A DNA stretch of 64,000 bases from Halodesulfovibrio sp. MK-HDV (GTDB lineage: Bacteria > Desulfobacterota > Desulfovibrionia > Desulfovibrionales > Desulfovibrionaceae). Below the pieces are notes generated by a model. That model searched no databases and was not told the origin of the DNA. It was given only the letters and a program-made list of their open reading frames with translations. Numbering within the stretch: the first letter of the stretch is position 1; every line of letters begins with the position of its first letter. The position numbers and the translations under genes are program-made. The stretch lies in assembly GCF_009914765.1 (NCBI RefSeq), contig NZ_WYDS01000015.1, positions 1 through 64,000 on the forward strand. The letters are read 5' to 3'. This document shows positions 18,475 through 26,809 of the stretch, piece after piece.

Positions 18475-19908
18475 ATGCTGAGACTTAACGTTCGACAGCG
18501 GATTATTGCAGGCTTTCTCATCCTTTCTATTTGCTTAGGGGGGCAGACCTACTTCTCCTATAAGCAATTACTTCTTGTTGAGGATAAAACATATTCAGTT
18601 GAATTTATTGATGATGTGGAAAGTTCTATTTTGAATTTCCGTCGGCAGGAAAAAAACTACCTGCTGTATGGAGAGGAAAGCAGCTATGATCTCGCCCTTG
18701 AGGAAATAGAAAATACGCTGCTGTTGTTGAATCAGCATTCTGATTTGAATTTTGATGCAACCATGATCGGCAATATAATTAAGCTGAAGAAAACTATTTC
18801 TGCTTATCGGGCAGGCATCATTTCCATGTATACTGTTGCAACACAACAGGGTCGGAATCTGAAGGCAGAGATAGTAAAGCTGCGTGAAATCGGGCAGGAA
18901 CTGGTTATTCAGGCGCAGAGTATTGCTACGTTGGAACGCGAAAATATTCTCAAAATTAACAGGCAATTGCGTAAGCAGTTGCTTTTTTCTATTTTAACAG
19001 TGACTTTTTTATTCCTGTGCACCCTGTATTTTATCTCCAAACGAATTGTGAGTCCGCTTAAGATTATTGAAGAGACTACAAAACAAATTGCGCAAGGTAA
19101 CTTTGCACCTGTTGAAGTGGAAAATGTGCATGATGAAATTGCACAAGTTCAGGTCGCTTTTAACCGTATGGTTTCTGAACTGGAACATCGCCAATCGCAA
19201 CTGGTTCAGGCTCAGAAAATGTCATCCATCGGTACGCTCAGTGCCGGTATCGCCCATCAGGTGAATAATCCACTCAACAATATTTCTACTTCTGCGCAAA
19301 TTTTGCAAGGTGAGCTGAGTAGTTCCATCGATCCCTTCGCTAAAAAGCTTCTTGATAATATTGAAACAGAAACAGCGCGTGCGCGGGATATTGTCCGTGG
19401 GTTGCTTGAATTTGCACGCTGTGCAGATTTGTCCGTGCGTACTGTGTCGTTGAAGACTGTTGTAGAGAATGCTGTACGGCTTGTTTCGTCACAGGTTCCT
19501 TCCGGAGTGACTTTGGAAGTGGATGTGCCAGAAGATATCTTTGTGCATATTGATCCACAGAGAATGGGTGAGGTGCTGATCAACCTCATCATTAATGCTA
19601 TTCAAGCCATGAAGGTGAATACTTCGGGGTTCATCACGATAACCGTACTGGAAGAACATGCTGAGGAGTCTGTAACGCTTGTTGTAACTGATTCCGGTAG
19701 GGGGATTAGTGACGCTGATTTGCCCAAGGTGTTTGACCCGTTCTTTACACGCAAAGATGTGGGTGAGGGCACGGGACTTGGGCTTTCTGTCGCATACGGC
19801 ATAATAGAAGAACTTGATGGAGAAATCCGCGTAGAAAGCACGCTCGGCGTCGGTTCCAGATTTTATATAGACTTACCGCTGGTGAACAGCGATGAGAGTG
19901 TCGCCTGA
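18475..19908 (+). CDS. sensor histidine kinase (HAMP, NtrB-like)
   Basis: A 477-residue membrane kinase: helix at about 9-28, an all-helical periplasmic sensor to about 165, a second helix at about 168-188, HAMP (RIVSPLKIIEETTKQIAQG), a short coil, HisKA with phospho-acceptor His261 in GIAHQVNNPLNN, and HATPase_c with the N box, DSGRGISD and GEGTGLGLSVAYGII. ATG 18475 has AGGAGG upstream; the frame extends further but has no other good start. It is 75 bp upstream of the NtrC-type regulator and is its evident partner. It may also phosphorylate the receiver domain of the Lon-like protease encoded convergently. Confidence 0.9.
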   Translation: MLRLNVRQRIIAGFLILSICLGGQTYFSYKQLLLVEDKTYSVEFIDDVESSILNFRRQEKNYLLYGEESSYDLALEEIENTLLLLNQHSDLNFDATMIGNIIKLKKTISAYRAGIISMYTVATQQGRNLKAEIVKLREIGQELVIQAQSIATLERENILKINRQLRKQLLFSILTVTFLFLCTLYFISKRIVSPLKIIEETTKQIAQGNFAPVEVENVHDEIAQVQVAFNRMVSELEHRQSQLVQAQKMSSIGTLSAGIAHQVNNPLNNISTSAQILQGELSSSIDPFAKKLLDNIETETARARDIVRGLLEFARCADLSVRTVSLKTVVENAVRLVSSQVPSGVTLEVDVPEDIFVHIDPQRMGEVLINLIINAIQAMKVNTSGFITITVLEEHAEESVTLVVTDSGRGISDADLPKVFDPFFTRKDVGEGTGLGLSVAYGIIEELDGEIRVESTLGVGSRFYIDLPLVNSDESVA

Positions 19909-19983: not shown

Positions 19984-21351
19984 ATGAATGAAGCGAAGAT
20001 ATTAATAGCTGAAGACGAGTTAATTGCTCGGGAAAATTTAGCGCATGTACTCTCTCAACAGGGCGCAACAGTCACAGCTGTTGAAAACGGTGCGCAGGCA
20101 CAGGCCGCTGTAGAAAAATATCAGTACGATGTTGTGCTGACGGATATGCGTATGCCCGACATCAGCGGGATGGAGTTGCTTCAGTTTATTAAGGCCAAGG
20201 CTCCGGATACAGAGGTTATTGTGCTGACAGGATACGCCACTGTAGATAATGCCGTGCAGGCAATGGGCAGAGGTGCATTTCAATATCTTGCAAAACCGGT
20301 TCGTCTTGATGAAGTGAGTTTGATGACGCAGAAGGCGCTGGAAAAGAAGCGGATGAAAGAAGAAGTAGCCATGTTGCGACAGCAGCTGGGAACTTCCGGT
20401 TCTGATAGAATAGTGGGGCATAGTACGCCGATTAATGTTCTGAAGCGTCAGATAGATCAAGTTGCGGCTGTGGGGTGCACGGTGCTTATTCAAGGCGAAA
20501 CAGGAACAGGCAAAGAGCTTGTTGCTAAAGCTCTGCATATGGGAAGCCCTAGAAGAAAGAATTTATTCTTCGCCATTAACTGTGCCTCGTTTAATGAAGA
20601 GCTGCTTGCGAACGAATTGTTCGGGCATGAAAAATCTGCATTTACCGGTGCTCATAGCGCGAAAAAAGGTCTGCTTGAATCTGCGGATAACGGTACATTT
20701 TTTCTGGATGAAGTTGGCGATATGCCATTGAGTATGCAGGCGAACTTGTTGCGAGTACTTGAAACTAGAAAGCTACTCCGAGTTGGCGGAACAATAGAAG
20801 TGCCGGTTGATGTGCGCATTATCGCAGCAACAAACCGAGATTTATTGAGCATGGTGGAGCATGGAACATTCCGCCGTGACCTGTATTACAGATTAAATGT
20901 TATAACGCTTGATGTGCCGCCGCTTCGTAAACGTAAAGATGACATACCGCTGTTGGCAGGCTTCTTTGTGAACAAATTTGCGTCTGTGTTTAAGAAAAAA
21001 ATTACAGATATTGATGATGAAGTGCTGAATATTCTGTCTGGATATGCTTTTCCCGGTAACGTTCGTGAACTGGAAAACTTAATGGAACGTGCCGTTGTGC
21101 TATGTAACGGAAAAGTTATTCGCGTAGCACAGTTACCGCCTGATTTATGGGGCGATAAACTGCTCCGGTCAACAGTGCCGGCTTCGCCTATTGAGTTCGA
21201 TGACGTGGTGTCGCTTGAAGATAATGAGCGTCGATACCTGCGTTGGGTTCTGGAACAGGCAGAAGGCAACAAAACCCGTGCGGCAGAATTGCTGGGCTTG
21301 AATAGAGGCTCTCTGTGGAGAAAAATGAAACGGCTCGGGCTTGATAATTAG
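19984..21351 (+). CDS. NtrC-family sigma-54 response regulator
   Basis: A 455-residue regulator with an N-terminal receiver (acidic ED pair at the start, phospho-acceptor Asp54 in VVLTDMRMPD, Thr in VLTGYATV, Lys in LAKP), an AAA+ domain (GETGTGKE, then SAFTGA in place of GAFTGA, FLDEVGD) and a Fis helix-turn-helix (NKTRAAELLGLNRGSLWRKM). It pairs with the upstream kinase. A likely target is the sigma-54 promoter at 23705-23721 with its three palindromes. From memory, a comparable kinase, regulator and Lon-like trio occurs in Desulfovibrio vulgaris around DVU3303-DVU3305; I could not check that. Confidence 0.92.
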   Translation: MNEAKILIAEDELIARENLAHVLSQQGATVTAVENGAQAQAAVEKYQYDVVLTDMRMPDISGMELLQFIKAKAPDTEVIVLTGYATVDNAVQAMGRGAFQYLAKPVRLDEVSLMTQKALEKKRMKEEVAMLRQQLGTSGSDRIVGHSTPINVLKRQIDQVAAVGCTVLIQGETGTGKELVAKALHMGSPRRKNLFFAINCASFNEELLANELFGHEKSAFTGAHSAKKGLLESADNGTFFLDEVGDMPLSMQANLLRVLETRKLLRVGGTIEVPVDVRIIAATNRDLLSMVEHGTFRRDLYYRLNVITLDVPPLRKRKDDIPLLAGFFVNKFASVFKKKITDIDDEVLNILSGYAFPGNVRELENLMERAVVLCNGKVIRVAQLPPDLWGDKLLRSTVPASPIEFDDVVSLEDNERRYLRWVLEQAEGNKTRAAELLGLNRGSLWRKMKRLGLDN

Positions 21352-21435: not shown

Positions 21436-23481
21436 TTAGCCTTCTCCCTGCGCGTGCTGTAACTCTGAGGACGGCAGGAGTACTAAATCTACCACTTCAT
21501 TGATAGAAGATATGAAATGCAGTTCCGCTGCGTTGCGCACTTCATCATTCATAACAAGCACTTCTCTTTTGTTGCGTTCCGGCAGCAGAATAGTGCGGAC
21601 TCCGGCTTGCTGCGCTGCCAAAATCTTTTCGCGCAATCCCCCTACAGGTAATACTCGTCCGCTCAGGGTAAATTCCCCCGTCAGGGCAACGTCCCTTCGT
21701 GCAGGTCGTCTCGTGAGTAGTGACAGCAGCGCCATCGCGATTGTTATTCCTGCTGATGCACCGTCTTTGGATATGTCACCAGCTGGGATGTGAACATGGA
21801 TGTCCGTTTGTTCAAACATATTCTCATCAATTGAAAACTGCGTAGCATTGCTTCGGATGAAACTGAGTGCTGTCTGGGCGGATTCTTTCAAAATGTCCCC
21901 CAGAGAGCCTGTCATCAGCAGTTGTCCAGTGCCTTTCATTTTGGCTGTTTCAATATAGATAAGCTGTCCGCCATATTCGCTCCATACCAGACCCGCCGTT
22001 ACACCGATAAGCGGCTGCGCTGTTGCAGCCTCAAATGTGTATCGCTCGTACCCCAGCAGTGAAACAATATCGTCGCTTGAAACAGAGATAGGTGGCTGTT
22101 TGGACTGTTGCAGAATCTGTAAATTGATTTTGCGGCAGACATTACCAATTTCTCTGTTCACACTGCGCAGCCCTGCATCTCTGGTGTAACCGGAAATGAG
22201 TGTGGACATGGCTTCCGGTGTGAACGAAATTTCGTTTTGAGAATAGCCGAGAGTGCGTAGCTGACGCGGCGCAAGGTAATCCAACCCGATTTGTTTCTTT
22301 TCATTCAAGGTGTAGCAGGAGAAGGGGATAATCTCCATTCTGTCCCGCAACGGTGCGGGGAGATTTTCTACTACGTTTGCTGTTGTAATGAACATGACGC
22401 GGGAAAGGTCGAACGGAGTATCAATATAGTAGTCTAAAAAATGCCTGTTCTGTTCAGGATCAAGAATTTCCAGCAGGACAGATGCAGGATCGCCTCGGAA
22501 GTCCTGACCTATTTTATCTATCTCATCCAACATAAAGACGGGGTTGTTTACACCGCATTTGTTCAGTTCACTGATGATGCGGCCAGCCATTGCGCCCACG
22601 TACGTGCGTCTGTGCCCGCGAAGTTCTGCCTCGTCGCGCATTCCGGCAAGTGAGAGTCTAACAAATTTTCTGGAAAGGGCATTGGCAACAGATTTGCCGA
22701 TGGATGTTTTTCCGGTACCCGGAGGGCCCGTGAAGCACAGGATTGGGCCTGAAACGGAACATGCCTGTTTCTGCTGTTCTAAAATTTCTTGAACGGTGTT
22801 GCGAAGAATCTCTAAGTTGATGGGTTTAGGCAAATAATGCAGAGCACCTTGTTTGAGTGCGCCAATGGCGTTGTCTACGGTTGCGTAGCCAGTAACAATA
22901 ATAAGCTTGGTGTCCGGCCATTCTTCCTGAACATAGTTAAGCAGCTCAAGCCCATCCATTTTCTGCATTTTAAGGTCAGTTACAATGCAGTCCACATTGC
23001 GTTCTTCCAGAATACTTACAGCCTCCAGACCATTTGAGGCGACAAGGATTTCGCAGGAAAGTTTTCCAAGTGCATATGCCATGTTGTCGCGGGAGATTTC
23101 TTCATCATCCACAACAAGTACGGTACTTTTTTTAATATGACAGGTGATGTTGGAAGCTAGATATTCTAGAATGCGCTGCTTTACGCCATTCAATCCAAAG
23201 TGTTCCTGATTAAGCACGGTGACGGCGTTTTCAAGCTCCAGATTATCCTGAGATGAAATATTCCACGGAAGCGAAAGCAGCATTTCTACATAGGTCACAC
23301 CAACGCCAAACTCGGCAATGGACGGATCTGTTCTGTCCAGCTTGGTGATTTCTTCCAGTGCAATGTGCCGTACATTTTCAGGCAGCTTTGCTTTCTCAAC
23401 GGCGCTACGCAGCTCTTCCTGCGTGGTTGCGGTTGTTTCCGGTACAGGGGCAATGTTCTCTGGTCTGCTAAAAAGTCCCAT
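21436..23481 (-). CDS. Lon-type ATP-dependent protease with an inserted response-regulator receiver domain
   Basis: A 681-residue hybrid. Residues about 1-112 match only the last part of the Lon N-terminal region (TYVEMLLSLPWN, then GLNGVKQRILEYLA). A complete receiver follows at about 120-235, with the VVDDEE acidic pocket, phospho-acceptor Asp169, VTGYATV and LPKP. The Lon AAA+ module then resumes at GPILCFTGPPGTGKT (Walker A 252-259) with FMLDEID, and ends in the Lon proteolytic domain with catalytic Ser576 (KDGASAG) and Lys619 (GGLREK), spaced 43 residues as in LonA. All catalytic and phosphorylation residues are intact. The substrate-binding LAN domain is missing. The start is taken at ATG 23481; an in-frame ATG at 23604 would add 41 residues across the operator region. 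Confidence 0.9.
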   Translation of the reverse strand: MGLFSRPENIAPVPETTATTQEELRSAVEKAKLPENVRHIALEEITKLDRTDPSIAEFGVGVTYVEMLLSLPWNISSQDNLELENAVTVLNQEHFGLNGVKQRILEYLASNITCHIKKSTVLVVDDEEISRDNMAYALGKLSCEILVASNGLEAVSILEERNVDCIVTDLKMQKMDGLELLNYVQEEWPDTKLIIVTGYATVDNAIGALKQGALHYLPKPINLEILRNTVQEILEQQKQACSVSGPILCFTGPPGTGKTSIGKSVANALSRKFVRLSLAGMRDEAELRGHRRTYVGAMAGRIISELNKCGVNNPVFMLDEIDKIGQDFRGDPASVLLEILDPEQNRHFLDYYIDTPFDLSRVMFITTANVVENLPAPLRDRMEIIPFSCYTLNEKKQIGLDYLAPRQLRTLGYSQNEISFTPEAMSTLISGYTRDAGLRSVNREIGNVCRKINLQILQQSKQPPISVSSDDIVSLLGYERYTFEAATAQPLIGVTAGLVWSEYGGQLIYIETAKMKGTGQLLMTGSLGDILKESAQTALSFIRSNATQFSIDENMFEQTDIHVHIPAGDISKDGASAGITIAMALLSLLTRRPARRDVALTGEFTLSGRVLPVGGLREKILAAQQAGVRTILLPERNKREVLVMNDEVRNAAELHFISSINEVVDLVLLPSSELQHAQGEG

Positions 23482-23544
23482 CTTTCCCGCCTTTTGTTTA
23501 TCTATGTATATCAGGTTGATATCAGTAAATCTATGTATTCCGCT

Positions 23545-23559
23545 GCTGCAATATGCAGC
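23545..23559. promoter_or_regulatory. palindromic operator copy A (GCTGCA arms)
   Basis: GCTGCAATATGCAGC: perfect 6-bp inverted arms around a 3-bp centre. First of three matching sites between the Lon-hybrid gene and the divergent stress operon, centred about 167 bp from the -12 box. Confidence 0.65.
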
Positions 23560-23597
23560 ATTTTTTTTGCGATATAATCCCATGTTGCAAATGAATT

Positions 23598-23612
23598 GCT
23601 GCAAATTACAGC
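23598..23612. promoter_or_regulatory. palindromic operator copy B
   Basis: GCTGCAAATTACAGC, with the same arms except one mismatch. Its centre lies 53 bp from copy A and 30 bp from copy C. Confidence 0.6.
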
Positions 23613-23627
23613 GATATAATTACAACC

Positions 23628-23642
23628 GCTGCAATTTGTAGC
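23628..23642. promoter_or_regulatory. palindromic operator copy C
   Basis: GCTGCAATTTGTAGC, extended to CCGCT...AGCGG outside. Closest of the three to the sigma-54 promoter (about 84 bp from its -12 box), in the normal enhancer range for an NtrC-type activator. Confidence 0.65.
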
Positions 23643-23704: not shown

Positions 23705-23721
23705 TTGGCACGAATGCTGCT
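23705..23721 (+). promoter_or_regulatory. sigma-54 promoter of the stress/exporter operon
   Basis: TTGGCACGAATGCTGCT matches the -24/-12 consensus at nearly every position, including GG and GC at ten-base spacing. It lies 42 bp before the first gene of the operon and downstream of three palindromes, so the NtrC-type regulator of this locus is the probable activator. Confidence 0.85.
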
Positions 23722-23763: not shown

Positions 23764-24252
23764 ATGAAGATACTTAAGATGCTGGAGTCCGTAACAACCG
23801 CAGCAGCATTTGCGGAAGCAGGTGAGTGGGATACGGCTCTGGAAATGATGAAGGCAGATGAGAAGCAGAAGAAGATCATCGTTGCCTATGACGGAGAACC
23901 AGCCGAAAGGCAGGTTATCCAAGCTGCGTTGCCTATTGCAGCACGTTTAGGATGCGAACTGTTGTTCGCCTGCGTGCTGGGCAAAGCAAAGGCAGGGCAG
24001 CTGGGTAAAAAGTTTCTTGAATCATCAAACCGTTCTTTCAAACAAATATTTAGCGAGGAGGTCGCCAAATTACCGGGTTCCACCCCAAGCATTAATGCCA
24101 GGCAAGTTATTGTGTTTTCGAGCTTTTGCGAGGCAGTACGAAATATTTGCAATGAAACGAGAGAAGTAGAATTTGTTCTTCTGCGGTGTGAAGAACGCAT
24201 ACCAGCTCAATTACACATAGATGTGCCCTATTTTTTTATGACGAATACTTAG
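23764..24252 (+). CDS. universal stress protein-like protein, first gene of the sigma-54 operon
   Basis: A 162-residue protein. Residues 1-32 form a helical module (MKILKMLESV, FAEAGEWDTALEMM) that recurs in the next gene. Residues about 37-160 look like a USP/nucleotide-binding alpha/beta fold (KKIIVAYDGEPAERQVIQAALPIAARLGCELLFACVL), but the usual C-terminal glycine-rich ATP-binding motif is not evident. GGTGAG lies a few bases before ATG 23764. It heads a six-gene run with small gaps. Confidence 0.65.
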   Translation: MKILKMLESVTTAAAFAEAGEWDTALEMMKADEKQKKIIVAYDGEPAERQVIQAALPIAARLGCELLFACVLGKAKAGQLGKKFLESSNRSFKQIFSEEVAKLPGSTPSINARQVIVFSSFCEAVRNICNETREVEFVLLRCEERIPAQLHIDVPYFFMTNT

Positions 24253-24306: not shown

Positions 24307-24474
24307 GTGAATCTGTTTAAAACGCTAGAAAGGCTATTTGTAGCGGTCGTGTTTGCTGAGAGTGGCGATAGTGATACGGCTAATCGTATCGTCAACGAGC
24401 ATAAGGGGAAAAAAGCAACATCTAACAGACAGGCTTCAAAGAACGCAAAAAAAAGACCTCAGTTACGTGCGTAA
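24307..24474 (+). CDS. small protein sharing the FAE-G-DTA module
   Basis: A 55-residue protein. The start is taken at GTG 24307 because AAGGAGG lies five nt before it; an ATG at 24262 has no usable spacing. The first 30 residues (MNLFKTLERL, FAESGDSDTANRIV) match the N-terminus of the preceding USP-like protein (FAEAGEWDTALEMM), then a Lys/Arg-rich tail follows. No known family. The shared module suggests a common partner or oligomerisation site. Confidence 0.65.
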   Translation: MNLFKTLERLFVAVVFAESGDSDTANRIVNEHKGKKATSNRQASKNAKKRPQLRA

Positions 24475-24506: not shown

Positions 24507-24815
24507 ATGAACGCTCACGACAGAAAGAAAAAAGCAAAAATCAAAGCTCTATTATTCGGCGCAGTAAGTATCGCCTTATACGCAGCTGTTTTTAAATTTG
24601 CAGATCCTATGGTCACTTTATATGCAAAGGGTGGCGCGTACTGTTTGCTGCCTGTTTCAACTGTATTTTTGTTTTCCTACGTACATGGGAACTTCGCCAG
24701 TAACGTTTGGACAGCATTAGGCATTGAAGCTTCCTCAAGTGCTGGGAGAAAGACTAAAAAGGCAGAAACAACCCAGCGTAAAGACACCCGAAGTCGCGCG
24801 GCAATGAATGCGTAG
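24507..24815 (+). CDS. small two-helix membrane protein
   Basis: A 102-residue protein with a basic N-terminus (DRKKKAKIK), two membrane helices (about 13-33 and 40-60) and a charged, Lys/Arg/Thr-rich cytoplasmic tail. It has a very good AAGGAGATATA ribosome site. No family recognised. It sits between the small-module gene and the TauE/SafE exporter, so it may be an accessory subunit of that exporter; this is inference. Confidence 0.65.
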   Translation: MNAHDRKKKAKIKALLFGAVSIALYAAVFKFADPMVTLYAKGGAYCLLPVSTVFLFSYVHGNFASNVWTALGIEASSSAGRKTKKAETTQRKDTRSRAAMNA

Positions 24816-24842: not shown

Positions 24843-25910
24843 ATGCATGATTTATTATTAGACGGCGCGCGCTTTGTAGACTTGTCTCTTGCGGGTGTGC
24901 TTTTTCTCTTCTTTGTAGGCTTCGTAGGCGGACTGGTAAGTGGCTTTATCGGCTCCGGCGGCGCATTTGTTCTTACACCGGGTATGATGAGTCTCGGCGT
25001 TCCGGGACCTGTCGCTGTTGCAAGTAACATGTGCCATAAATTCCCTAAAGCACTTGTAGGCGCATTAAAACGTTACAAGTACGGTCAGGTAGATATTAAA
25101 ATGGGTTTGATTGTCGGTATCTCTGCCGAAGTTGGCGTGCAGATTGGTATTCAAATTCAAAAACTAATTCTTGAGTTATGGGGACCAGCTGGTTCAAACC
25201 TCTACGTTTCGTTAGCATTTGTGTTCGTGCTGGTTACCGTTGGCAGCTTTGTTATGAAAGATGCCATCACTACAAAACGCAATGGTGGTGAAGAAAAAGT
25301 AACCAACCTTGCTAAAAAACTGCAAAGCATCGAACTGTGGCCGATGGTGACCTTTAAAGGCAGCGACATCCGAATTTCATTCTGGTTTACCGCACCGGTT
25401 GGCCTTGCAGCAGGTTTGCTTGCAGCTACTATTGCTGTTGGCGGTTTCGCAGGCGTACCGGGCATGATCTACATTATCGGTATGACCAGCCTTATGGCAT
25501 CTGCAACCGAGCTTGTTGTTGCATTTGTAATGGGTCTTGGCGGCACACTCATCTGGGCATTCTATGGTATGGTAGACATTCGCCTTACCCTTATAATTCT
25601 TGCCGGTTCATTATTTGGTGTTCAGCTTGGCGCAATCGGTACTACGTATGTTAAGGATTATGTAATCAAATATGTAATGGCGACTATTATGCTGATCGTT
25701 GCATTCAGTCGCGGTCTTGCTATTCCTAAATACTTAAAACAGCTTGATGCTATTAACTGGGACTCCGGTCTTATCAGTAGCATGAGTCAGGTAAGTTTCG
25801 GACTTATGTGTTTTGCTTTGGGCGTAGGCGCGTACATCATCCTTAAAGGTATGATCGTTGGTCGCAGAAAAGAACGTGAAATGGAAATGGGTGCAGGCTC
25901 TAACGCATAA
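24843..25910 (+). CDS. TauE/SafE family sulfite/organosulfonate exporter
   Basis: Inner-membrane protein of 355 residues with about eight helices. The family pattern of two related halves is visible: GGLVSGFIGSGGAFVLTP in the first half and GLLAATIAVGGFAGVPGMIYIIG in the second. These proteins move sulfite, sulfoacetate or similar anions; in a sulfur-reducing organism sulfite export is plausible, but the substrate is not shown. The AGGAGATATACC site fixes the start. Universal stress proteins lie on both sides in the same operon. Confidence 0.85.
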   Translation: MHDLLLDGARFVDLSLAGVLFLFFVGFVGGLVSGFIGSGGAFVLTPGMMSLGVPGPVAVASNMCHKFPKALVGALKRYKYGQVDIKMGLIVGISAEVGVQIGIQIQKLILELWGPAGSNLYVSLAFVFVLVTVGSFVMKDAITTKRNGGEEKVTNLAKKLQSIELWPMVTFKGSDIRISFWFTAPVGLAAGLLAATIAVGGFAGVPGMIYIIGMTSLMASATELVVAFVMGLGGTLIWAFYGMVDIRLTLIILAGSLFGVQLGAIGTTYVKDYVIKYVMATIMLIVAFSRGLAIPKYLKQLDAINWDSGLISSMSQVSFGLMCFALGVGAYIILKGMIVGRRKEREMEMGAGSNA

Positions 25911-25945: not shown

Positions 25946-26809
25946 ATGTATAAAAAAATGCTTGTAGCTTTTGACGGCGCAGAATCATCCTTGGATATAG
26001 TTCGGCAGGCAGCACGCTTTGCACGTTCTGAAAATTCCATGATCGATATTGTTACGGTTTGTCCGGAGTATCAGGGTGATTTGCGAATCCAAGGTGATAC
26101 AAGTGTTCTGTACAATATGTACGAAGATATTCGTAACGCTCTTAATAATGCAGTCTCTTTATGTGAATCAGAAGGCATGAAGGTTCGGGGACATTTCTGC
26201 ATAGGAAATCCGGCAGATGTTCTTGTGGAGCAGATAACTTCCCTCGGATGTGACCTTGTCGCACTCGGCACGCACTCAAAAAAGCTTCTGCAATCCATAG
26301 TGATCGGCTCTGTTGCCGGTACGGTAGTGCGTCAGACAGATTGTGATCTTCTGGTAATCACCGGAAACAAAGGGCTTTCATTACAAAGTATTTTTCTAGC
26401 ATATGACGCAAGTGCAGAAGCCAACGCTGCGGCGCAACAGGCGAGCGCATTGGCAGAACGCTATGGCTCTCGACTTACAGCCGGTATCGCCTACGAAATG
26501 GACATGGAGGCGTTCAGTCTTTCACCAGTGGTAGAACGTGCCGTGGTGGAAAAAACAGAGCAGGCTGTGGAAGCCGTGAAAAGCATAGTCGACGCTTCGG
26601 ATGTAAGGGACTTTGATGTGGCAGTGCGCTACGGCAATCCAACACACGAGGTGTTAATTGAAGAGGCGCAGAAAAAGAACGCAGGGCTGGTCGTTATTGG
26701 GGCGGGTGTACGCAGTAAGCTGTCCCATCTTCTAGTGGGTGGTGTGGTGCATAAACTTGTATACAGCAGTGCTTGTCCCGTACTTATTGTGAAGGAGCAG
26801 ATGCAATGA
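25946..26809 (+). CDS. tandem universal stress protein
   Basis: A 287-residue protein of two USP domains. Domain 1 (about 1-140) starts MYKKMLVAFDGAESS and ends GTHSKKLLQSIVIGSVAGTVV. Domain 2 (about 145-285) starts SIFLAYDASAEAN and ends GAGVRSKLSHLLVGGVVHKLV before CPVLIV. The G-x2-G-x9-G(S/T) ATP motif is imperfect in both, so nucleotide binding is uncertain. It is 35 bp after the exporter and overlaps the next gene by 4 bp (ATGA), showing co-translation. Confidence 0.88.
   Translation: MYKKMLVAFDGAESSLDIVRQAARFARSENSMIDIVTVCPEYQGDLRIQGDTSVLYNMYEDIRNALNNAVSLCESEGMKVRGHFCIGNPADVLVEQITSLGCDLVALGTHSKKLLQSIVIGSVAGTVVRQTDCDLLVITGNKGLSLQSIFLAYDASAEANAAAQQASALAERYGSRLTAGIAYEMDMEAFSLSPVVERAVVEKTEQAVEAVKSIVDASDVRDFDVAVRYGNPTHEVLIEEAQKKNAGLVVIGAGVRSKLSHLLVGGVVHKLVYSSACPVLIVKEQMQ

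What the first reader, a model, noticed from the sequence alone, without database searches (positions are those of the whole stretch)
21436..23481. Lon protease with a phospho-receiver domain inserted exactly before its ATPase
The Lon sequence stops at RILEYLA, a full receiver (Asp169, Thr and Lys switch residues) follows, and Lon resumes at GPILCFTGPPGTGKT. All ATPase and Ser576/Lys619 protease residues are intact, and the usual substrate-recognition LAN domain is missing. The receiver closely resembles that of the neighbouring NtrC-type regulator (shared stretch LTGYATVDNA or VTGYATVDNA). This looks like a protease switched on or off by histidine-kinase phosphorylation, which Lon is not known to be in textbooks.
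Basis: partly seen in the sequence, partly recalled or inferred. Interest (0 to 1): 0.78.

Follow-up and report, generated by a model that had tools for sequence, protein, structure and literature searches.

The report
Lon protease carrying a kinase-signal receiver
A Halodesulfovibrio-like bacterium encodes a protein-destroying enzyme (Lon) with a signalling domain plugged into its middle, so that a membrane sensor probably controls it; the same kind of hybrid was noted in Desulfovibrio in 2011, I found no biochemical test of it, and it belongs to an old, conserved gene cluster.

Summary
The minus-strand gene 23481-21436 encodes a 681-aa LonA-type protease with a complete receiver (residues 119-240) inserted between the three-helix bundle/neck and the ATPase core. 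No LAN domain is found. The phosphorylation, ATPase and Ser/Lys protease residues are intact and nearly invariant in 91 aligned sequences. An AlphaFold model (pLDDT 86.9) overlays LonA chains with the receiver as an insert. Sampled hybrids form one clade. They occur in 36 of 297 genomes of the window's phylum and 24 of 198 of a second. 74 of 90 lie beside an NtrC-type regulator and a histidine kinase, 60 of 90 beside a TauE-type transporter; 0 of 69 ordinary Lon loci have either.

The implied novelty is not right. Rajeev et al. 2011 described DVU3303 of Desulfovibrio vulgaris as a response regulator with a lon protease, in a 'three-component system', that may need phosphorylation. A 2023 transposon study found the three genes cofit (>0.9). 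My searches found no biochemistry. Verdict: new member of a known, untested kind.

An unannotated 55-aa helical-hairpin microprotein family in the divergent operon is the fresh lead.

The parts
21436..23481 (-). REC-Lon hybrid protease (681 aa): short N-tail, three-helix bundle 18-70, neck helices 83-116, receiver 119-240, AAA+ 245-400, lid 401-480, Ser576/Lys619 protease 490-670
22762..23127 (-). receiver domain insert, residues 119-240; acid pair D125/D126, phospho-acceptor D169, switch T197/Y216, K219
18475..19908 (+). histidine kinase (HAMP-HisKA-HATPase), presumed phosphate donor
   Evidence: Pfam; neighbour in most clusters
19984..21351 (+). NtrC-type sigma-54 response regulator, convergent with the protease gene
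   Evidence: Pfam; closest receiver in the genome by E-value
23544..23560 (.). palindromic operator box 1 (TGYTGCA-N3-TGCARCA)
23597..23613 (.). palindromic operator box 2
23628..23642 (.). palindromic operator box 3 (weaker)
23706..23721 (+). sigma-54 promoter-like site TGGCAC-N5-CTGCT, in register in 9 of 9 sequences of the genus compared, window included
23764..24252 (+). 162-aa protein: hairpin motif at N-terminus plus Usp-like stretch (below the Pfam cut-off)
24307..24474 (+). 55-aa microprotein (GTG start after aaaggaggg): helical hairpin plus basic tail ending RPQLRA
24507..24815 (+). 102-aa protein, no Pfam hit at E<=0.001
24843..25910 (+). TauE/SafE-type putative anion transporter, conserved cluster member
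25946..26809 (+). tandem universal stress protein

Best explanation
The gene encodes an extra Lon protease that is itself a response regulator. SHOWN: a complete receiver sits in the hinge between the N-terminal helices and the ATPase core of a LonA that lacks only its LAN/coiled-coil front; the sampled hybrids are one clade with catalytic and phosphorylation residues kept; they travel with a kinase, an NtrC-type regulator and a divergent Usp/TauE operon with operator-like boxes. INFERRED: the kinase phosphorylates D169 of the protease and the Asp of the NtrC-type regulator in parallel. Phosphorylation moves the receiver (its long last helix 223-242 runs straight into the first ATPase strand) and so sets assembly or substrate entry of the Lon ring, most likely switching it on. 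Transcription of the transport/stress operon and turnover of a small set of proteins are thus changed by one signal. The substrate and the sign of the switch are unknown.
For: Residue conservation in 91 sequences; split from ordinary Lons with receiver columns removed, support 100 (43 and 29 rows); NtrC+HK beside 74 of 90 distinct hybrids and TauE beside 60 of 90 against 0 of 69 and 0 of 69 ordinary Lon loci (38 of the 69 hold both flanks, same zeros); the neighbouring NtrC receiver is the closest in the genome by E-value, and family-wide the two receivers share helix alpha1, a kinase-contact face (recalled): 0.52 identity against 0.27-0.31 in alpha2/alpha3; the model overlays 517 of 518 residues of LonA chain 6on2_D and 249 of 250 of the three-helix-bundle/AAA fragment 4ypn across the insert; boxes upstream of 61 of 91 hybrids against 2.4% of random windows; in D. 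vulgaris the three genes have pairwise cofitness >0.9 (PMC10102598 passage).
Against: No phosphotransfer, ATPase or degradation data exist here or in what I found. The receiver likeness is not specific evidence of one kinase: alpha4, the beta5-alpha5 loop and core strands are as alike as alpha1 (0.56-0.58); in the window itself alpha1 identity to the NtrC receiver (0.36) is matched by the best of 18 other own receivers (mean 0.15); same-cluster pairs are hardly closer than cross-cluster pairs (0.49 against 0.47; own neighbour median rank 19 of 75; all). 16 of 90 hybrids lack a nearby NtrC+HK pair, 7 of them with at least 6 kb held on both sides. The D. vulgaris cofitness may be a polar effect, since lon seems, from gene numbers, to head that operon. 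Mutants of all three genes grow better in chlorate while loss of the target transporter DVU3299 hurts, which simple activation of DVU3299 does not predict.
Confidence: 0.6

Rival explanations
1. The receiver is a built-in adaptor rather than a gate: with the LAN domain gone, it recruits substrates (for example the partner NtrC-type regulator through receiver-receiver pairing, or the hairpin proteins of the divergent operon) in a phosphorylation-dependent way, like the ClpXP adaptors RssB and CpdR but fused in cis.
For: LAN domain not found although both other Lons of the genome keep it; receiver alpha4 face shared with the NtrC receiver (0.58; the best of 18 other own receivers also reaches 0.58); a small-protein family is encoded next door.
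Against: No interaction data. If it degraded the NtrC partner, lon and ntrC mutants should have opposite phenotypes, whereas in D. vulgaris they match, polarity aside.
Confidence: 0.25
2. The receiver mainly competes with the NtrC-type regulator for the kinase (phosphate sink or insulator), and the protease part works without regard to phosphorylation.
For: The two receivers resemble each other and share one kinase locus.
Against: A sink needs no fusion into the protease hinge, kept in the 91 sequences aligned.
Confidence: 0.07
3. The receiver is a structural spacer that is no longer phosphorylated.
For: None found.
Against: D125, D169 and K219 in 91 of 91, T or S at 197 in 91 of 91.
Confidence: 0.04

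Closest known systems
DVU3303 (REC-Lon response regulator of Desulfovibrio vulgaris Hildenborough) in the DVU3303-3305 three-component system
   Same: Receiver plus Lon protease in one protein, adjacent kinase and sigma-54 regulator, adjacent operon of membrane, hypothetical and UspA-type proteins, regulator controls its own operon and the neighbouring one (PMC3333781 passages; PMC4641369 table row).
   Different: Here the protease gene is convergent with kinase and regulator instead of apparently heading one operon. Sequence identity to DVU3303 itself was not measured: its sequence was not in hand by name.
LonA (endopeptidase La, S16)
   Same: Three-helix bundle, AAA+ core, lid, Ser-Lys protease, over the TIGR00763 cut-off; model superposes on LonA chains.
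   Different: No LAN substrate-binding domain or preceding coiled coil; about 120-residue receiver inserted before the ATPase.
NtrC/DctD-type response regulators
   Same: Receiver controls an AAA+ ATPase next to it in the chain; receiver matches NtrC-type receivers.
   Different: Output is a Lon unfoldase-protease, not a sigma-54 activator with DNA-binding domain; receiver is internal, not N-terminal.
RssB and CpdR (receiver-type adaptors of ClpXP; recalled, RssB also in an abstract listed)
   Same: A receiver links two-component signalling to an AAA+ protease.
   Different: There the receiver is a separate adaptor acting in trans on ClpXP; here it is fused in cis to Lon.

Membership tests
Lon protease, endopeptidase La | Score over the curated TIGR00763 cut-off; AAA+ motifs and Ser-Lys dyad | tested here: met
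   680.1 bits against 608.05; K258, D319/E320, S576, K619
Lon protease, endopeptidase La | LonA N-terminal LAN (PF02190) substrate-binding domain | tested here: not met
   absent at E<=0.001; present in both other full Lons of the genome. So it is a LonA derivative, not a canonical LonA
Lon protease, endopeptidase La | ATP-dependent proteolysis by a hexamer | not testable with these tools
   needs protein
Response regulator (receiver domain) | PF00072 over cut-off with acid pair, phospho-acceptor Asp, Thr/Ser and Lys | tested here: met
   93.3 bits against 30.2; residues
Response regulator (receiver domain) | Phosphorylation by a cognate histidine kinase | not testable with these tools
   only indirect: kinase next door in most clusters
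DVU3303-type REC-Lon three-component system | Receiver and Lon protease in one open frame | tested here: met
   91 of 92 regions; L254 holds a fragment
DVU3303-type REC-Lon three-component system | Adjacent histidine kinase and sigma-54 response regulator | tested here: met
   window; 74 of 90 clusters
DVU3303-type REC-Lon three-component system | Neighbouring UspA/membrane-protein operon with a conserved operator | tested here: met
   operon; boxes. Whether the boxes equal the published DVU3305 motif was not tested: its letters were not seen
DVU3303-type REC-Lon three-component system | Direct sequence orthology to DVU3303 | not tested
   no named D. vulgaris sequence was compared

The most novel reading that the evidence does not exclude
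The hybrid is the executor of a four-part circuit that my searches did not find described: kinase to REC-Lon to a dedicated microprotein family to a TauE-type anion transporter. The hairpin microprotein (24307-24474) and the hairpin-tagged Usp-like protein (23764-24252), made from the operon divergent from the protease gene, are its phosphorylation-gated substrates or adaptors, with the hairpin or the conserved basic RPxxRA-like tail as recognition signal; the signal thus acts on the transporter by proteolysis as well as by transcription.
Probability: 0.12. Interest if true: 0.78.

Novelty: new member of a known kind. Interest (0 to 1): 0.5.

Why it matters
If phosphorylation does switch the protease, this is a two-component output that destroys proteins directly, with no separate adaptor and no gene expression in between. 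The hexamer would be a simple system for asking how a signalling domain gates a AAA+ machine. The convergent gene order here (35 of 75 clusters with an NtrC-type neighbour) should allow a lon deletion without polarity on kinase and regulator, which the D. vulgaris order seems not to, so a hypothesis open since 2011 becomes cleanly testable.

Tried and rejected
Rejected: pseudogene or frameshift fusion (one open frame here, and in 91 of 92 regions). Rejected: missed upstream LAN domain (the stop-to-stop frame is only 727 codons). Not found: a match on plasmids at 1e-25. Rejected as strong evidence: pairwise co-evolution of the two receivers. The receiver tree (132 rows, 127 columns, few for so many rows) puts Lon receivers on one side of a branch with support 0, and separates 35 cluster NtrC receivers plus 17 other own receivers from the rest (96*); descent from the neighbour's receiver by duplication is possible, not shown. 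The window-wide count of sigma-54-like sites with one mismatch is at chance (7 against 6.3; a first pattern with the wrong spacing also gave chance); only the exact site and its register in 9 of 9 sequences of the genus count, and the strict pattern found such a site upstream of only 7 of 91 hybrids. The operator pattern was read off the same sequences that were then counted; it also occurs elsewhere in the genome (39 strand-hits with up to 1 mismatch against 9 for the reversed pattern), with a triple at C13:94700-94802 near another NtrC gene, so it is not unique to this regulator. The motif profiles (A3, A4) were seeded from REC-Lon loci, so their association is partly built in. No REC-Lon chain among the best 60 PDB sequence matches shown of 273. 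A first index slip for the catalytic serine and one for the side of overlapping frames were corrected.

Rows dropped: of 35 non-own hits, 34 were fetched (G206 not); of 24, 20 were fetched (G439, G447, G476, G547 not); all 26 non-own full-length hybrids were (the fragment in G030 not). L037 and L196 are one protein, hence 90 distinct; the counts out of 91 include both. Of 48 other own receivers only 18 rows (two of them one receiver) entered the identity comparison; the second-best by E-value (L167) is not among them. In the tree near-copies were dropped (91 hybrids and 71 ordinary Lons to 43 and 29), and the ordinary Lons come from the capped list of 80 plus two of the own genome.

Full report
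WHAT IS THERE. The finding is real. The gene runs on the minus strand from 23481 to 21436 and gives 681 residues; the plus strand is closed. Pfam finds a receiver at 121-230, AAA at 248-385, Lon lid at 412-462 and the Lon protease domain at 467-668, and no LAN domain. The NCBIfam model for endopeptidase La is passed at 680 bits against 608. Aligned with the two other full Lons of the genome, which both carry a LAN domain, the hybrid keeps the three-helix bundle and neck, breaks after RILEYLA for about 120 residues of receiver, and resumes at GPILCF. The nearest named relative is a Halodesulfovibrio sp. MAG, 93% identical over its best segment.

MORE THAN CHANCE. Full-length hybrids occur in 27 of 59 relatives including the window's genome. 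With residues 1-245 as query (E<=1e-33), they occur in 36 of 297 genomes of the phylum including the own one (two of the 36 matches, in G063 and G206, lie in frames of about 250 aa, too short for the whole hybrid) and in 24 of 198 of the phylum of a Nitrospira japonica MAG, that MAG included. Of 10 hand-picked genomes 4 had one, three of them already known. I took 92 regions (80 fetched named loci, and the window); 91 hold receiver, ATPase and protease in one frame. In these 91, D125, D169, K219, K258, D319, S576 and K619 are invariant, 126 is D or E, 197 is T or S, and E320 is E in 90. With the receiver columns removed, hybrids and ordinary Lons are two sides of one branch with support 100 (43 and 29 rows after near-copies were dropped): one origin is the simplest reading.

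STRUCTURE. AlphaFold on 67 family members gives pLDDT 86.9 and pTM 0.79. The model aligns to LonA chains with the receiver as an insert: 517 of 518 residues of 6on2_D (Z 31.7, 3.0 A), 249 of 250 of 4ypn, a three-helix-bundle/AAA fragment (Z 31.3, 2.0 A) (the 50 Foldseek rows shown are all Lon). So the receiver is plugged into a hinge without disturbing the predicted Lon fold. Its last helix, 223-242, runs directly into the first ATPase strand. A PDB sequence search returned Lons and separate receivers, no hybrid among the 60 rows shown of 273.

SURROUNDINGS. Convergent with the gene lie a histidine kinase (18475-19908) and an NtrC-type regulator (19984-21351); divergent from it lie a 162-aa Usp-like protein, a 55-aa microprotein, a 102-aa protein, a TauE/SafE-type transporter and a tandem Usp protein. 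In 90 distinct hybrids, NtrC+HK within 7 kb is found in 74, TauE in 60, all three in 54; with 6 kb held on both sides, 58 and 44 of 65, and neither NtrC nor TauE in 5. Among 69 ordinary Lon loci from the scan, with flanks up to 6 kb (both held in 38), 0 have NtrC+HK, 1 has NtrC alone, 0 have TauE. Gene order varies: convergent with NtrC in 35 of 75, same direction downstream in 26, other in 14. Of 48 other receivers in the genome, the neighbouring NtrC's is closest by E-value, but by identity its lead is slight (0.38 against at most 0.37 in 18 rows). Family-wide the alpha1 helix is shared (0.52, against 0.27-0.31 in alpha2/alpha3), yet alpha4, the beta5-alpha5 loop and the core strands are as alike (0.56-0.58), and same-cluster pairs are barely closer than cross-cluster pairs.

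CIS SITES. A palindrome TGYTGCA-N3-TGCARCA lies upstream of 61 of 91 hybrids with up to 2 mismatches, against 2.4% of random windows of the same loci and 0.3% of shuffles; 48 of 59 clusters with TauE and 12 of 29 without have it. The pattern was derived from these sequences. The window has three boxes and a sigma-54-like site at 23706-23721 facing the Usp/TauE operon; two boxes 52-53 bp apart and the TGGCAY-N6-TGCT site are found in 9 of 9 sequences of the genus, window included. Outside the genus a strict sigma-54 pattern was rarely found (7 of 91 in all). The NtrC-type regulator is the obvious binder (inference); DVU3305 was reported to regulate its own operon and DVU3302-3298 (PMC3333781, passages).

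WHAT IS KNOWN. Rajeev et al. 2011 (PMC3333781; passages; [quoted passage not shown] PMC4641369 (2015; passages) lists DVU3302-3298 and DVU3303-3305 as targets of DVU3305. The 2023 transposon study (PMC10102598, passages) finds the three genes detrimental in 6.25 mM chlorate with pairwise cofitness >0.9, and the target transporter DVU3299 important (-2.3). The signs do not fit simple activation of DVU3299; the authors suggest an effect on its expression. A 2005 census of signalling proteins does not mention Lon in its main text (PMC1183210). None of my nine paper searches listed biochemistry of the hybrid in the titles and abstract openings shown.

MECHANISM. Most likely (0.60): kinase to D169, receiver movement through its last helix, change in ring assembly or substrate entry, probably activation, in parallel with phosphorylation of the NtrC partner. 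Shown are anatomy, conservation, linkage and boxes; phosphotransfer, gating, sign and substrate are inferred. Main rival (0.25): the receiver replaces the lost LAN domain as a substrate-recruiting adaptor, as RssB and CpdR do in trans for ClpXP (recalled).

A NEW LEAD. The divergent operon encodes small proteins with a motif K-L-E-x4-A-x-A-F-A-E-x-G-E-x2-T-A. A first pattern found it in 28 of 91 hybrid regions; a profile built from such hits finds it in 60 of 91 (56 within 2.5 kb) and in 0 of 69 ordinary Lon loci. In 57 regions with a Met-started copy, 49 have a stand-alone copy of at most 75 aa, 29 a copy in a 120-200 aa protein. The stand-alone form has a basic tail; 24 of 46 have RPxxR in the last 14 residues. 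AlphaFold gives a two-helix hairpin, residues 2-31, with a low-confidence tail (pLDDT 78, pTM 0.48). Pfam and NCBIfam show no match near a cut-off for the hairpin of five members (the Usp stretch of the 162-aa protein lies just under Pfam's cut-off). Among 59 relatives, 28 have a match at E<=1e-3; of the 31 listed matches under 1e-7, 27 lie beside a hybrid (two of these beside a contig-end fragment), 4 do not. In the 297-genome sample, 21 of 36 genomes with the hybrid and 15 of 261 without have a match (Fisher). All these profiles were seeded from hybrid loci, which inflates the link. It is not exclusive: the own genome's other copies under E 1e-3 (two in one 126-aa protein; a fifth match has E 0.5) lie in a Lon-free cluster of kinases, receivers, an NtrC-type regulator and a TauE-like transporter (the roles there read from the translations, not scanned). 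So the microprotein is tied to TauE/two-component clusters, and to REC-Lon within them; whether it is a substrate, an adaptor or a transporter partner is open.

VERDICT. A true, well-conserved hybrid and a real puzzle, but a new member of a kind in print since 2011. Interest 0.5.

Noticed in passing
window 23764-24252 and 24307-24474 (+): Unannotated microprotein family: helical hairpin motif AFAEAGE, stand-alone with a basic, often RPxxRA-like C-terminus or in front of a Usp-like stretch, found in 60 of 91 REC-Lon regions, mostly divergent from the protease gene.
   Followed up: partly
L332 (G000:C8:111000-124000): A second cluster of kinases, single receivers, NtrC-type regulator and a TauE/SafE-like transporter without Lon (read from translations), holding a 126-aa protein with two hairpin motifs: a possible Lon-free paralogous system.
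   Followed up: partly
L292 (G000:C13:94700-94802): Three palindromes like the operator boxes stand between an NtrC-type regulator gene and an aminopeptidase P-like gene.
   Followed up: no
D. vulgaris data in PMC10102598: Kinase, regulator and Lon mutants gain fitness in chlorate while the mutant of their target transporter loses it; the signs do not fit simple activation.
   Followed up: no
window 24843-25910 (+): The TauE-type transporter is about 60% identical even in the second phylum, more than the REC-Lon N-terminal/receiver part there (about 40%): it may be the functional core of the cluster.
   Followed up: no
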